Part shown: piece after piece, positions 6,990 through 10,505 of the stretch | Position numbering within the stretch: the stretch's first letter is position 1 | Layout: each line of letters begins with the position of its first letter | Program-made: the position numbers and the translations under genes | Assembly (NCBI RefSeq): GCF_013184985.2 | Contig: NZ_CP063418.1 | Location: forward strand, 372,001-436,000 | Length of the DNA: 64,000 nucleotides | From: Actinomyces faecalis | GTDB taxonomy: Bacteria > Actinomycetota > Actinomycetes > Actinomycetales > Actinomycetaceae | Direction: 5' to 3' | Notes under the pieces: model-generated | The model's input: the letters and a program-made list of their open reading frames with translations, nothing else | Databases searched by the model: none | Told to the model about the DNA's origin: nothing

Positions 6990-7241
6990 TCACTTGCCGT
7001 CAGACATGCCCTTGTCGGACATCTCCTTGTCGGACATCGCGTCGTCAGACATCTCCTTGTCAGACATCTCCTTGTCAGACATCTCCTTGTCGGACATTTC
7101 CTTGTCGTCCATGGCGTCGTCGGACATCGCCGACTCTGAGGGGGCGGGGCTCATCTGTGAGGGAGAGTCGGAGCCGCACGCGGCGACTCCCAGGGTGGAC
7201 AGTGCAATGAGGGCGGCGGCGAGGGTGGTACGGGTACGCAT
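6990..7241 (-). CDS. MSDKE pentapeptide-repeat lipoprotein
   Basis: An 83-aa secreted lipoprotein. ATG 7241 has AGGAG upstream. Residues 1-22 are a lipoprotein signal peptide: basic MRTRTT, a hydrophobic core, and lipobox VAAC with Cys22. After a short Ser/Pro linker the mature part is almost wholly tandem pentapeptides of the type MSDKE/MSDDA/MDDKE (about ten copies, residues 38-80), rich in Met, Asp, Glu and Lys. It resembles the MXKDX pentapeptide-repeat family in style but with the order M-S-D-K-E. Encoded in 15-bp DNA repeats, so copy number may vary by slippage. The promoter resembles a SigK site, divergent from dipZ. Met/acid-rich repeats suggest copper binding or a methionine oxidation sink; this is inference. 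Confidence 0.8.
   Translation of the reverse strand: MRTRTTLAAALIALSTLGVAACGSDSPSQMSPAPSESAMSDDAMDDKEMSDKEMSDKEMSDKEMSDDAMSDKEMSDKGMSDGK
7007..7126 (-). repeat. 15-bp tandem repeats inside the lipoprotein gene
   Basis: Repeats of the form GACATCTCCTTGTCG/A (plus strand), about eight 15-bp units with small variations, coding for MSDKE-type pentapeptides. The unit is a multiple of three, so slippage would change repeat number without breaking the frame. Confidence 0.8.
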
Positions 7242-7291
7242 CGGGTTGCTCCTGATGTCGTGGGGTGCGCTTGGGGCGCCTGTCACGAGTG

Positions 7292-7318
7292 GTTCGGAGC
7301 CGGGTGGTGTGCGGATGC
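7292..7318 (-). promoter_or_regulatory. Candidate SigK-type promoter of the repeat lipoprotein gene
   Basis: On the minus strand GCATCC (complement of 7313-7318), 15 nt, then CCGAAC (complement of 7292-7297), 50 nt before the lipoprotein ATG. It resembles the mycobacterial SigK consensus CCATCC-N16/17-CCGAAT and the sister site for dipZ on the other strand. Confidence 0.55.
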
Positions 7319-7364
7319 CAGCCATCCGTGTGTTGTGCGCCATATTTTATTGATGCCTAGGAGG

Positions 7365-7392
7365 ACATCCACCCTCCGCCTCGTCTCCGAAC
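7365..7392 (+). promoter_or_regulatory. Candidate SigK-type promoter of dipZ
   Basis: ACATCC (7365-7370), 16 nt, CCGAAC (7387-7392), 44 nt before the dipZ ATG. Ten of twelve box positions match the mycobacterial SigK consensus CCATCC-N16/17-CCGAAT with correct spacing. The sigma factor itself is encoded directly downstream of dipZ. Confidence 0.62.
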
Positions 7393-7436
7393 CAGGGGTG
7401 AATAACCGCACGAGCCGCCACCTCAGGAGGCCCCAC

Positions 7437-9149: not shown

Positions 9150-9170
9150 GGGTAGGGGTGCTGATGCGGC

Positions 9171-9176
9171 TACGAT
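9171..9176 (+). promoter_or_regulatory. -10 element for a leaderless sigK transcript
   Basis: TACGAT followed by 7 nt and GTG 9184. It lies in the 34-bp gap after dipZ and would give sigK a housekeeping promoter besides read-through from dipZ. Confidence 0.4.
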
Positions 9177-9183
9177 GCCACGC

Positions 9184-9762
9184 GTGGAGGACCTTACGAC
9201 GATCCCTGGCGCCCCGCCTGGCGCTGTGCCTGACGACGAGGGCCTCCTCCTGCGCGTCGCGGCCGGTGACCAGGAGGCCTTCGCCGCCCTGTATGACACC
9301 TGGGCGCCGCGTCTGCTCGCGTTGGCAGTGCGGATCGTCGTCGACCGGGCACAGGGCGAGGAGGTCCTCCAGGAGGTCATGCTGGAGGTGTGGAGACGGG
9401 CCGGGTCCTTTGACCCCCAGCGGGGCAGCGCGCGTGCCTGGCTCGTCACGCTCACCCGTCGCCGCGCCATCGACCGTGTCCGGGCCAGCCAGGCTGCCCG
9501 TGACCGTGAGGGCTCCTGGAACGACTACCTTCCTGATACCGACCAGACGGTTGCGCAGGTCGAGGCTCGGCTCATCGCCGACGAGGTGCGTCAGGCCCTG
9601 GTGGACCTCGGGGAGCCCTACCGCTCCACCCTCGAGCTCGCCTACTTCACCGGTCTCACCCACCGTGAGATCGCACGACGCACTGACGTTCCACTGGGGA
9701 CGGTCAAGAGCCGGATCAGGTCCGGGATGAGCAAGCTGCGTGATCTGTTGGGGGAGGGATGA
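9184..9762 (+). CDS. sigK: ECF RNA polymerase sigma factor SigK
   Basis: A 192-aa ECF sigma factor. Region 2 reads GDQEAFAALYDTWAPRLLAL...EEVLQEVMLEVWRRAGSFDP, followed by RGSARAWLVTLTRRRAIDRVR and QAARDRE, which matches mycobacterial SigK closely. Region 4 contains YRSTLELAYFTGLTHREIA and the recognition helix GTVKSRIRSGMSKLRDLL. GTG 9184 is chosen because a -10 hexamer lies 7 nt upstream; ATG 9175 is the alternative, and neither has a ribosome binding site. The stop overlaps the rskA start (ATGATGA). It probably directs the two SigK-like promoters at 7.3 kb, while RskA holds it inactive at the membrane. Confidence 0.88.
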   Translation: MEDLTTIPGAPPGAVPDDEGLLLRVAAGDQEAFAALYDTWAPRLLALAVRIVVDRAQGEEVLQEVMLEVWRRAGSFDPQRGSARAWLVTLTRRRAIDRVRASQAARDREGSWNDYLPDTDQTVAQVEARLIADEVRQALVDLGEPYRSTLELAYFTGLTHREIARRTDVPLGTVKSRIRSGMSKLRDLLGEG

Positions 9763-10505
9763 TGACGGTAAGCCACAACCGCGGGGACAACCGCCAGGGT
9801 GAGAGCGCATGGGACGACGACGTTGAGCGTCTGCTCGACAGTGAGACCGCCAGCTTGCTGGGGGCGTCCCTGGAGCCGATGGAGCCCTCGCCGGCGTTGC
9901 GGGCCTCCCTGATGGCCCGCGTCGCCGTGACTGAGCAGGAACGGCTTGAGCGCCTTGCCCCGGTGGTACCGCTGCGCCGTCGAAGGGTGCTGCATCACAC
10001 GGTCAGGGTGGCCGCTGCCGTCGTCCTGGCCTGCGCAGGCTATGCGGCGGGCTGGAGCACCGGCCACGGCTCAGCCATGGGAGACATGGGTGACATGGTC
10101 GACTACACCCACCTCAACCAGGCCCAGGACGTCCGGCGCGTCACCGACACCATGCCTGACGGGCACGTGGCGACCCTGACCTGGTCGCAGCGCATGGGGA
10201 TGACGGCCCTGAGCCTGCCCGAGGAGATGCGTGAGGCCGCCCAGGGCCACAGCCTCCAGGCCTGGCTCGTTAAAGGTGGCATCACGACCTCCCTGGGCCT
10301 CTACGACCCCGAGGCCGGCAGTGGCTTCACCTTCCTGGACCTCATGCCCGAGGAAGGAGAGAGGGTCCTTATCACCCAGGAGCCGGCCGGTGGCTCCGAG
10401 CAGCCTACCGGCCAACCCCTGGTCACTTTCGATGTTCACGCGGATGGCACGACCACTCGCCGTCCTGATCCGCAGCCGGCCGGAGGGCAGGGAGCCGACG
10501 CCTGA
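9759..10505 (+). CDS. rskA: Anti-sigma-K factor RskA
   Basis: A 248-aa single-pass membrane anti-sigma factor. The N-terminal cytoplasmic part (1-80) would bind SigK, a hydrophobic segment at about 82-100 crosses the membrane, and the C-terminal RskA domain (about 115-240) includes the characteristic LQAWLVKGG and GSGFTFLDL segments. The start overlaps sigK by 4 bp, fitting a regulator pair made in fixed ratio. Right after the membrane helix there is an unusual H103-x3-M107-x2-M110-x2-M113-x4-H118 stretch with Asp and Gly between, a plausible metal-binding or oxidation-sensing motif. In mycobacteria RskA is cleaved by regulated proteolysis to release SigK. Confidence 0.85.
   Translation: MMTVSHNRGDNRQGESAWDDDVERLLDSETASLLGASLEPMEPSPALRASLMARVAVTEQERLERLAPVVPLRRRRVLHHTVRVAAAVVLACAGYAAGWSTGHGSAMGDMGDMVDYTHLNQAQDVRRVTDTMPDGHVATLTWSQRMGMTALSLPEEMREAAQGHSLQAWLVKGGITTSLGLYDPEAGSGFTFLDLMPEEGERVLITQEPAGGSEQPTGQPLVTFDVHADGTTTRRPDPQPAGGQGADA

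What the first reader, a model, noticed from the sequence alone, without database searches (positions are those of the whole stretch)
6990..10505. SigK-like module with divergent SigK-type promoters for a repeat lipoprotein and dipZ
Seen: ACATCC-N16-CCGAAC before dipZ and GCATCC-N15-CCGAAC on the other strand before a lipoprotein gene, with sigK and rskA directly after dipZ. Known: mycobacterial SigK reads CCATCC-N16/17-CCGAAT and controls dipZ and the secreted antigens MPT70/MPT83. Inference: the same circuit exists here, with the fasciclin-type antigens replaced by an unrelated MSDKE-repeat lipoprotein. That would make the lipoprotein the new effector of a conserved redox/envelope regulon.
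Basis: partly seen in the sequence, partly recalled or inferred. Interest (0 to 1): 0.75.

Follow-up and report, generated by a model that had tools for sequence, protein, structure and literature searches.

The report
SigK circuit with a methionine-rich lipoprotein
An Actinomyces genome carries the gene circuit known from tuberculosis bacteria as SigK, but the surface protein it appears to control is a short methionine-rich lipoprotein instead of the usual antigen, which hints that the circuit deals with oxidants or copper that attack methionine at the cell surface.

Summary
Two SigK-type boxes face away from each other between a repeat lipoprotein and dipZ-sigK-rskA; they are the only two CATCC-N15/17-CCGAAC sites in the 2.70 Mb genome. 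Counting the window, 45 regions keep the layout, and on each side 40 of 45 have a box with at most one mismatch, against 2.0 and 2.6 expected. The lipoprotein is a methionine-rich repeat lipoprotein (mean 14% Met in Actinomycetaceae, 19% in Corynebacterium). In many other actinobacteria the same place holds an MPT70/83-type fasciclin lipoprotein whose linker is already Met-rich (8.1%). So "unrelated" is probably wrong: it looks like signal peptide plus linker with the fasciclin domain gone (inference). The anti-sigma factor RskA has near-invariant Met and His in its outer domain, while SigK lacks the published redox cysteine pair. Most likely mechanism: an envelope methionine-oxidation response, the lipoprotein being the oxidant sink and DipZ bringing in electrons; a Cu(I)/Ag(I) response is the main rival. 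Function is untested. New variant of a known kind; it offers testable candidates for the unknown SigK signal.

The parts
6990..7241 (-). Met-rich repeat lipoprotein, 83 aa; lipobox at Cys22, then mainly MSDKE/MSDDA pentapeptides; Met 16% of the 62-residue mature part, one Cys, no His
   Evidence: (15-bp tandem repeat, 7.2 copies)
7292..7318 (-). SigK-type promoter of the lipoprotein, GCATCC-N15-CCGAAC
7330..7343 (.). degenerate copy (5 of 8 core bases, in register) of the GTGA-N6-TCAC operator-like element found in most relatives' intergenic regions
   Evidence: the match in the window was read by eye
7365..7392 (+). SigK-type promoter of dipZ, ACATCC-N16-CCGAAC
7437..9149 (+). dipZ: DsbD/CcdA membrane part (Cys20, Cys144), thioredoxin part with C311-x-x-C314, C-terminal Thioredoxin_10 domain
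   Evidence: 2hyx, 5cyy
9175..9762 (+). sigK: ECF sigma factor, no cysteine
   Evidence: 4nqw
9759..10505 (+). rskA: anti-sigma factor with RskA_C domain; outer domain holds near-invariant Met107, Met110, Met132, His136, Met146, Met148, Met196

Best explanation
This is a compact SigK module. Shown by sequence: dipZ, sigK and rskA are consecutive on one strand (sigK and rskA overlap) and the lipoprotein lies on the other; each side has its own SigK-type box. Inferred from the family: RskA holds SigK at the membrane until an outside signal releases it, and SigK then fires both promoters, which also feeds back on sigK. Inferred by analogy: the signal is oxidation of the conserved methionines in RskA's outer domain, for example by hypochlorous acid, chloramines or peroxide; the surface lipoprotein is a methionine sink that is oxidised in place of other envelope proteins; and DipZ carries electrons from the cytoplasm outwards to reduce oxidised envelope thiols and perhaps, through a partner, the sulfoxides. 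The lipoprotein is most simply the signal peptide plus expanded Met-rich linker of an MPT83-type lipoprotein that lost its fasciclin domain (inference).
For: Paired boxes conserved in relatives and unique in the genome. SigK and RskA matches follow dipZ in 45 of 47 relatives' loci. Lipoprotein Met averages 14.3% in 42 Actinomycetaceae rows (5 of them repeats) and 18.9% in 30 Corynebacterium rows, against 0.6% in 12 other lipoproteins from the loci. In the 36 Met-rich proteins the commonest Met spacing is mostly 5-6, with Asp, Lys and Ser between; 34 of 36 have only the lipobox Cys and 22 of 36 have no His. Ten of 36 match the MXKDX repeat family at E<=1, best 3e-6. In Brucella an ECF sigma/anti-sigma pair answering HOCl drives the MXKDX protein BcrX, and its Azospira relative is said to scavenge hypochlorite by sacrificial oxidation (PMC8315932, passages). 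HprS is reported to sense through two methionines in its periplasmic loop (PMC10151825, passages). RskA outer-domain Met averages 5.7% in 35 Actinomycetaceae rows and 7.9% in 15 Corynebacterium rows (many cut short), against 1.9% in 41 others; single Met sites 36 to 39 of 40, His136 40 of 40. Met-rich versus fasciclin effector needs one change on the DipZ tree and the two do not co-occur within 1.7 kb.
Against: No extracytoplasmic methionine sulfoxide reductase was found: MsrA and MsrB are single matches without a signal peptide by eye, and MsrP is only a fragment match, so the sink may not be recycled. Met plus an invariant His in RskA fits a metal site as well. In nine related genomes the lipoprotein has lost its Met (0-1%) and has no exact box, yet RskA stays Met-rich, so sensor and lipoprotein are not locked together. 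Mycobacterial RskA rows, with fasciclin effectors, lie between at 1.6 to 9.2% Met. Only 8 of 31 Corynebacterium loci show any box: 7 on the lipoprotein side, 6 on the dipZ side, 5 on both. The effector change is one event on the tree, so the association with a Met-rich RskA is one observation, not many. No expression data.
Confidence: 0.47

Rival explanations
1. Cu(I)/Ag(I) response: RskA's Met/His cluster binds the metal and releases SigK; the Met-rich lipoprotein is a surface metal sponge, and DipZ keeps metal-attacked thiols reduced.
Against: Lipoprotein Met spacing is mostly 5-6 rather than MxM or MxxM (exceptions such as L075, L077, L078 have MM and M-x3-M), and 22 of 36 Actinomycetaceae versions have no His. 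W142 is shared with many RskAs that lack the Met. In ten relatives whose neighbouring frames were listed I recognised no copper gene by eye; no family search was run on them.
Confidence: 0.22
2. Structural or shielding lipoprotein: the repeat is a flexible charged stalk or coat, its Met content is incidental, and SigK answers some other envelope stress.
For: Nine relatives keep a low-complexity lipoprotein at the same place almost without Met, rich in Gly, Gln and Ser. The protein is repetitive and varies in length.
Against: Met is kept at 5.6 to 30.6% in the other 36 and is high in 30 of 31 Corynebacterium loci with other spacer residues, which is not expected of an incidental residue; none of the nine low-Met versions has an exact SigK box, against 24 of the 36 Met-rich ones.
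Confidence: 0.18
3. On origin only (compatible with any function): an unrelated Met-rich lipoprotein gene moved into the slot when the fasciclin gene was lost.
For: Met-rich lipoprotein and fasciclin gene do not co-occur within 1.7 kb of dipZ in any of 186 loci. Signal-peptide similarity is weak (median 6.5 against 1.8 bits, only 8 controls, one scoring 10.9).
Against: Same place, orientation, promoter type and lipobox start; fasciclin lipoproteins already carry a Met-containing linker of 26 to 48 residues (48 of 54 with at least one Met).
Confidence: 0.3
4. Chance or dead boxes: the sites look like SigK promoters but do not work.
For: Consensus matches alone show no function; no transcription data here.
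Against: A box with at most one mismatch in 40 of 45 regions per side against 2.0 and 2.6 expected, and uniqueness in the genome.
Confidence: 0.03

Closest known systems
SigK/RskA regulon of the Mycobacterium tuberculosis complex (mpt70, mpt83, dipZ)
   Same: Sigma factor (PDB 4nqw, E 1.7e-36), RskA_C anti-sigma, DipZ (2hyx, E 2e-82), box type, dipZ as target; Mycolicibacterium septicum L150 has the same divergent FAS1 / dipZ-sigK layout.
   Different: No fasciclin protein; the lipoprotein is a Met-rich repeat; sigK lies behind dipZ; SigK lacks the Cys133/Cys183 pair described in PMC7509140 (sections 3, 11, 13 read); RskA outer domain is Met-rich.
BcrS-AbcS/bcrXQP of Brucella and its relative yedYZ-mrpX of Azospira (HOCl response)
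   Same: ECF sigma plus anti-sigma beside a short Met-rich repeat protein (MXKDX type) from a sigma-dependent promoter (PMC8315932, passages). That mrpX is under SigF-NrsF is recalled; Melnyk 2015 is not held.
   Different: Different sigma class (ECF16 there); MsrPQ there, DipZ here; lipoprotein here; Gram-positive envelope here.
Fasciclin lipoproteins beside dipZ in Microbacteriaceae, Demequina, Cellulosimicrobium and others, many with sigK and rskA near
   Same: Same slot in many, SigK-type boxes, lipobox, Met-containing linker.
   Different: Keep the FAS1 domain; RskA outer domain poor in Met.
cskE-sigK-dipZ cluster of Corynebacterium pseudotuberculosis (PMC3078919, passages)
   Same: sigK, its anti-sigma gene and dipZ together in Corynebacterium.
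   Different: The passages name no Met-rich lipoprotein, and call full-length dipZ exclusive to pathogens; here it is found in many further genomes.

Membership tests
SigK sigma factor (ECF18 per PMC7509140) | best match to the SigK model and structure | tested here: met
   NCBIfam PRK09646 SigK is the best hit, E 1.7e-59, but 200.8 bits is below its 226 cut-off; PDB 4nqw best hit
SigK sigma factor (ECF18 per PMC7509140) | conserved Cys pair 133/183 (94% of ECF18 per PMC7509140) | tested here: not met
   no cysteine in the window SigK; by motif the pair is seen in mycobacterial and Cellulomonadaceae SigKs
SigK sigma factor (ECF18 per PMC7509140) | linked RskA_C anti-sigma factor | tested here: met
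   PF10099 E 8.6e-14 and NF052375, both over cut-off
SigK regulon | CATCC-N15/17-CCGAA(C/T) promoters before dipZ and a surface lipoprotein | tested here: met
SigK regulon | SigK-dependent transcription | not testable with these tools
   needs start mapping with and without sigK
MPT70/MPT83 fasciclin lipoprotein | FAS1 domain | tested here: not met
   no Pfam family in the lipoprotein; no PF02469 match in the genome
MXKDX Met-rich repeat protein (TIGR02953) | score over family cut-off | tested here: not met
   window protein E 0.18, 11.8 bits against 41; 10 of 36 relatives and window at E<=1, best 3e-6
DipZ | CcdA-like membrane part, CxxC thioredoxin part and C-terminal domain in one chain | tested here: met
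HOCl sink with MsrPQ recycling (MrpX/BcrX system) | extracytoplasmic methionine sulfoxide reductase | tested here: not met
   one MsrA and one MsrB match without signal peptide by eye, and an MsrP fragment match (49 of 169 positions) in the genome

The most novel reading that the evidence does not exclude
The ancestral job of the SigK-DipZ-MPT70/83 regulon is methionine-based handling of oxidants (or soft metal) at the actinobacterial surface: the Met-rich linker, not only the fasciclin domain, is a working part; in Actinomycetaceae and Corynebacterium the linker alone became the effector while RskA evolved a Met/His sensor in place of the SigK cysteine switch, and the whole module then moved between these groups.
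Probability: 0.33. Interest if true: 0.8.

Novelty: new variant of a known kind. Interest (0 to 1): 0.6.

Why it matters
PMC7509140 (discussion read) states that the signal starting the SigK cascade is unknown; what MPT70/MPT83 do is not settled (recalled). A natural version in which the fasciclin domain is dispensed with and Met is enriched in both the anti-sigma factor's outer domain and the lipoprotein names concrete candidate signals (HOCl, chloramines, peroxide, Cu/Ag) that can be tested in harmless strains.

Full report
WHAT IS THERE. Between 6.99 and 10.51 kb lie a short lipoprotein gene on the minus strand and, divergent from it, dipZ, sigK and rskA on the plus strand. The lipoprotein starts at 7241 and has 83 residues: a signal peptide with lipobox (GVAAC), then mainly pentapeptides of the MSDKE kind; Met makes 16% of the 62-residue mature part, with one Cys and no His. 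The DNA is a 15-bp tandem repeat of 7.2 copies. The two boxes are as described and suitably placed. No sigma-70 promoter was found in 6850-7500.

IS IT MORE THAN CHANCE. CATCC-N15-17-CCGAAC occurs twice in the window against 0.10 expected. In the whole 2.70 Mb genome CATCC-N15-17-CCGAA has 12 sites (12 control sites); only these two continue with C, none with T. ATCC-N15-17-CCGAAC occurs three times (9 control sites), the third inside an open frame. By this consensus the regulon is these two divergent units.

RELATIVES. In 200 genomes of the family, 72 have a DipZ match. I fetched 57 loci: L043-L089 (47) hold the closer DipZs, L090-L097 and L099 distant DipZ-like proteins without sigK or rskA matches at the thresholds used, L098 a remnant; the other, mostly short or weak matches were not fetched. 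SigK and RskA matches follow dipZ in 45 of the 47 (all but L088 and L089). In 44 of the 47 a lipoprotein gene lies divergent (not in L059, L084, L089). Counting the window, 45 intergenic regions give: dipZ side 29 exact and 40 with at most one mismatch, lipoprotein side 24 and 40; dinucleotide shuffles give 0.1 exact, and 2.0 and 2.6 with at most one mismatch. In relatives the -35 is mostly AATCC, GATCC or CATCC. Contig lengths identify some genomes, e.g. G181 with Actinomyces denticolens, G178 with A. oricola, G158 with A. bowdenii, all in the window's genus group, and G179 with Schaalia cardiffensis outside it, so the window's genus is Actinomyces (inference).

THE EFFECTOR. The lipoprotein is Met-rich in 36 of those 45 (5.6 to 30.6%). 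In nine (L043, L044, L045, L047-L050, L052, L055; the five of them in the tree form one clade, support 100) it is Gly/Gln/Ser-rich with 0-1% Met, and none of the nine has an exact box on that side; five have one mismatch and four have two. Across all loci with the strand set, the gene found beside dipZ is: Actinomycetaceae 42 Met-rich, 9 low-complexity, 3 none of 54 (five rows repeat a genome under its name, so 37, 9, 3 of 49); Corynebacterium 30 Met-rich, 1 none of 31 (L185 and L222 are one genome); other actinobacteria 55 fasciclin, 46 none, 0 Met-rich of 101. No fasciclin locus also holds a Met-rich lipoprotein within 1.7 kb. 'None' includes loci with only 1.5 kb of flank and mycobacteria with no fasciclin gene in the stretch searched. 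Fasciclin domains occur in 6 of 200 family genomes and in 14 of 121 Corynebacterium genomes, of which only G622 is also among the 34 with dipZ, its fasciclin match about 120 bp before dipZ: an exception in that genus, and its locus was not fetched.

WHERE IT CAME FROM. In Microbacteriaceae, Demequina, Sinomonas, Cellulosimicrobium and others an MPT70/83-type fasciclin lipoprotein lies beside dipZ, divergent in many, with SigK-type boxes in many. Its linker between lipobox and domain is Met-rich: 149 of 1842 residues (8.1%) in 54 proteins, 48 of 54 with at least one Met, against a mean of 2.5% in the domain (three further fragments, of L141 and L204, lacked the motif or lipobox and were dropped) and 0.6% in 12 other lipoproteins of the loci. 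The simplest reading is that the Met-rich lipoprotein is signal peptide plus linker with the domain gone. That is inference: signal-peptide similarity is weak evidence (median 6.5 against 1.8 bits with 8 controls, one control at 10.9). The DipZ tree (148 rows, quick method) needs one change between fasciclin and Met-rich effectors and joins Corynebacterium with Actinomycetaceae (71 rows, SH-aLRT 99); L249 and L250, from Corynebacterium, sit inside Actinomycetaceae. So one switch, and later transfer of the module, is the better reading.

THE SENSOR. The window SigK has no cysteine. By motif, none of the Actinomycetaceae rows shows both cysteines of the pair whose oxidation state is reported to set SigK-RskA binding (PMC7509140; sections 3, 11 and 13 read); mycobacterial rows there do. 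RskA instead shows Met in its outer domain: mean 5.7% in 35 Actinomycetaceae rows, 5.1% in the nine of the Gly/Gln clade, 7.9% in 15 Corynebacterium rows (many cut short by the locus end; two of them Actinomycetaceae-like), 1.9% in 41 others, most Microbacteriaceae-type rows near 1% and mycobacterial rows from 1.6 to 9.2%. Sites are near-invariant: Met107 36, Met110 37, Met132 39, His136 40, Met146 38, Met148 37, Met196 38 of 40. L085 and L086 lack Met146 and Met148. The Gly/Gln clade keeps the Met in RskA although its lipoprotein lost it, which speaks against strict coupling.

HOW IT LIKELY WORKS. A precedent for an ECF sigma/anti-sigma locus with a Met-rich repeat protein is the HOCl system BcrS-AbcS/bcrXQP and the related mrpX of Azospira (PMC8315932, passages); a precedent for Met-based sensing at the membrane is HprS (PMC10151825, passages). 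By analogy RskA would sense Met oxidation, the lipoprotein would be the sink, and DipZ, whose cysteines are intact, would import electrons. The missing piece is an outer methionine sulfoxide reductase: MsrA and MsrB are single matches that look cytoplasmic by eye, and the MsrP match is a fragment, so the sink may be single-use. Copper or silver is the main rival, because the RskA Met/His pattern also fits a soft-metal site; the fold comparison does not decide. Corynebacterium loci mostly lack a recognisable box (any in 8 of 31), so SigK control there is not shown.

VERDICT. A real, well conserved SigK module with a new effector type and a changed anti-sigma outer domain. The regulatory anatomy in Actinomycetaceae is firm (about 0.9); the oxidant-sink function is a hypothesis (about 0.47).

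Noticed in passing
window 7330-7343 and intergenic regions of L043-L088: A GTGA-N6-TCAC element (CRP/GlxR-like, name recalled) occurs with at most one mismatch somewhere in 39 of 45 intergenic regions, 4.1 expected; in many it starts 13 positions after the end of the lipoprotein -35 box. In the window the copy in that register is degenerate (the window's counted match lies elsewhere). The genome has a Crp-type HTH match.
   Followed up: partly
intergenic regions of the loci: The distance between the two divergent -35 boxes clusters near 18, 28, 39, 50 and 62 bp, steps of about 11 bp, in fasciclin loci (30 rows, R 0.73) and Met-rich loci (19 rows, R 0.89); 0 of 2000 random sets were as periodic, though rows are related and were thinned by eye.
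   Followed up: partly
window 6211-6852 (-): A DUF1440 (YagU-like) gene lies behind the lipoprotein and stays near the module in many Actinomyces relatives; in L051, L054, L057 and L058 it lies beyond rskA instead.
   Followed up: partly
window 6946-6983: A 10-bp inverted repeat (GGGGGCGTGG / CCACGCCCCC) just after the lipoprotein stop, without a T run; a possible transcript end (by eye; not reported).
   Followed up: no
L077, L078, L088, L089, L098: A second dipZ follows rskA in L077 and L078; the dipZ match carries an in-frame stop in L088 and L089 and is a remnant without a sigK match in L098, so the module seems to duplicate and decay.
   Followed up: no
L249, L250: Corynebacterium loci whose DipZ and RskA resemble those of Actinomycetaceae, pointing to later transfer of the module.
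   Followed up: partly
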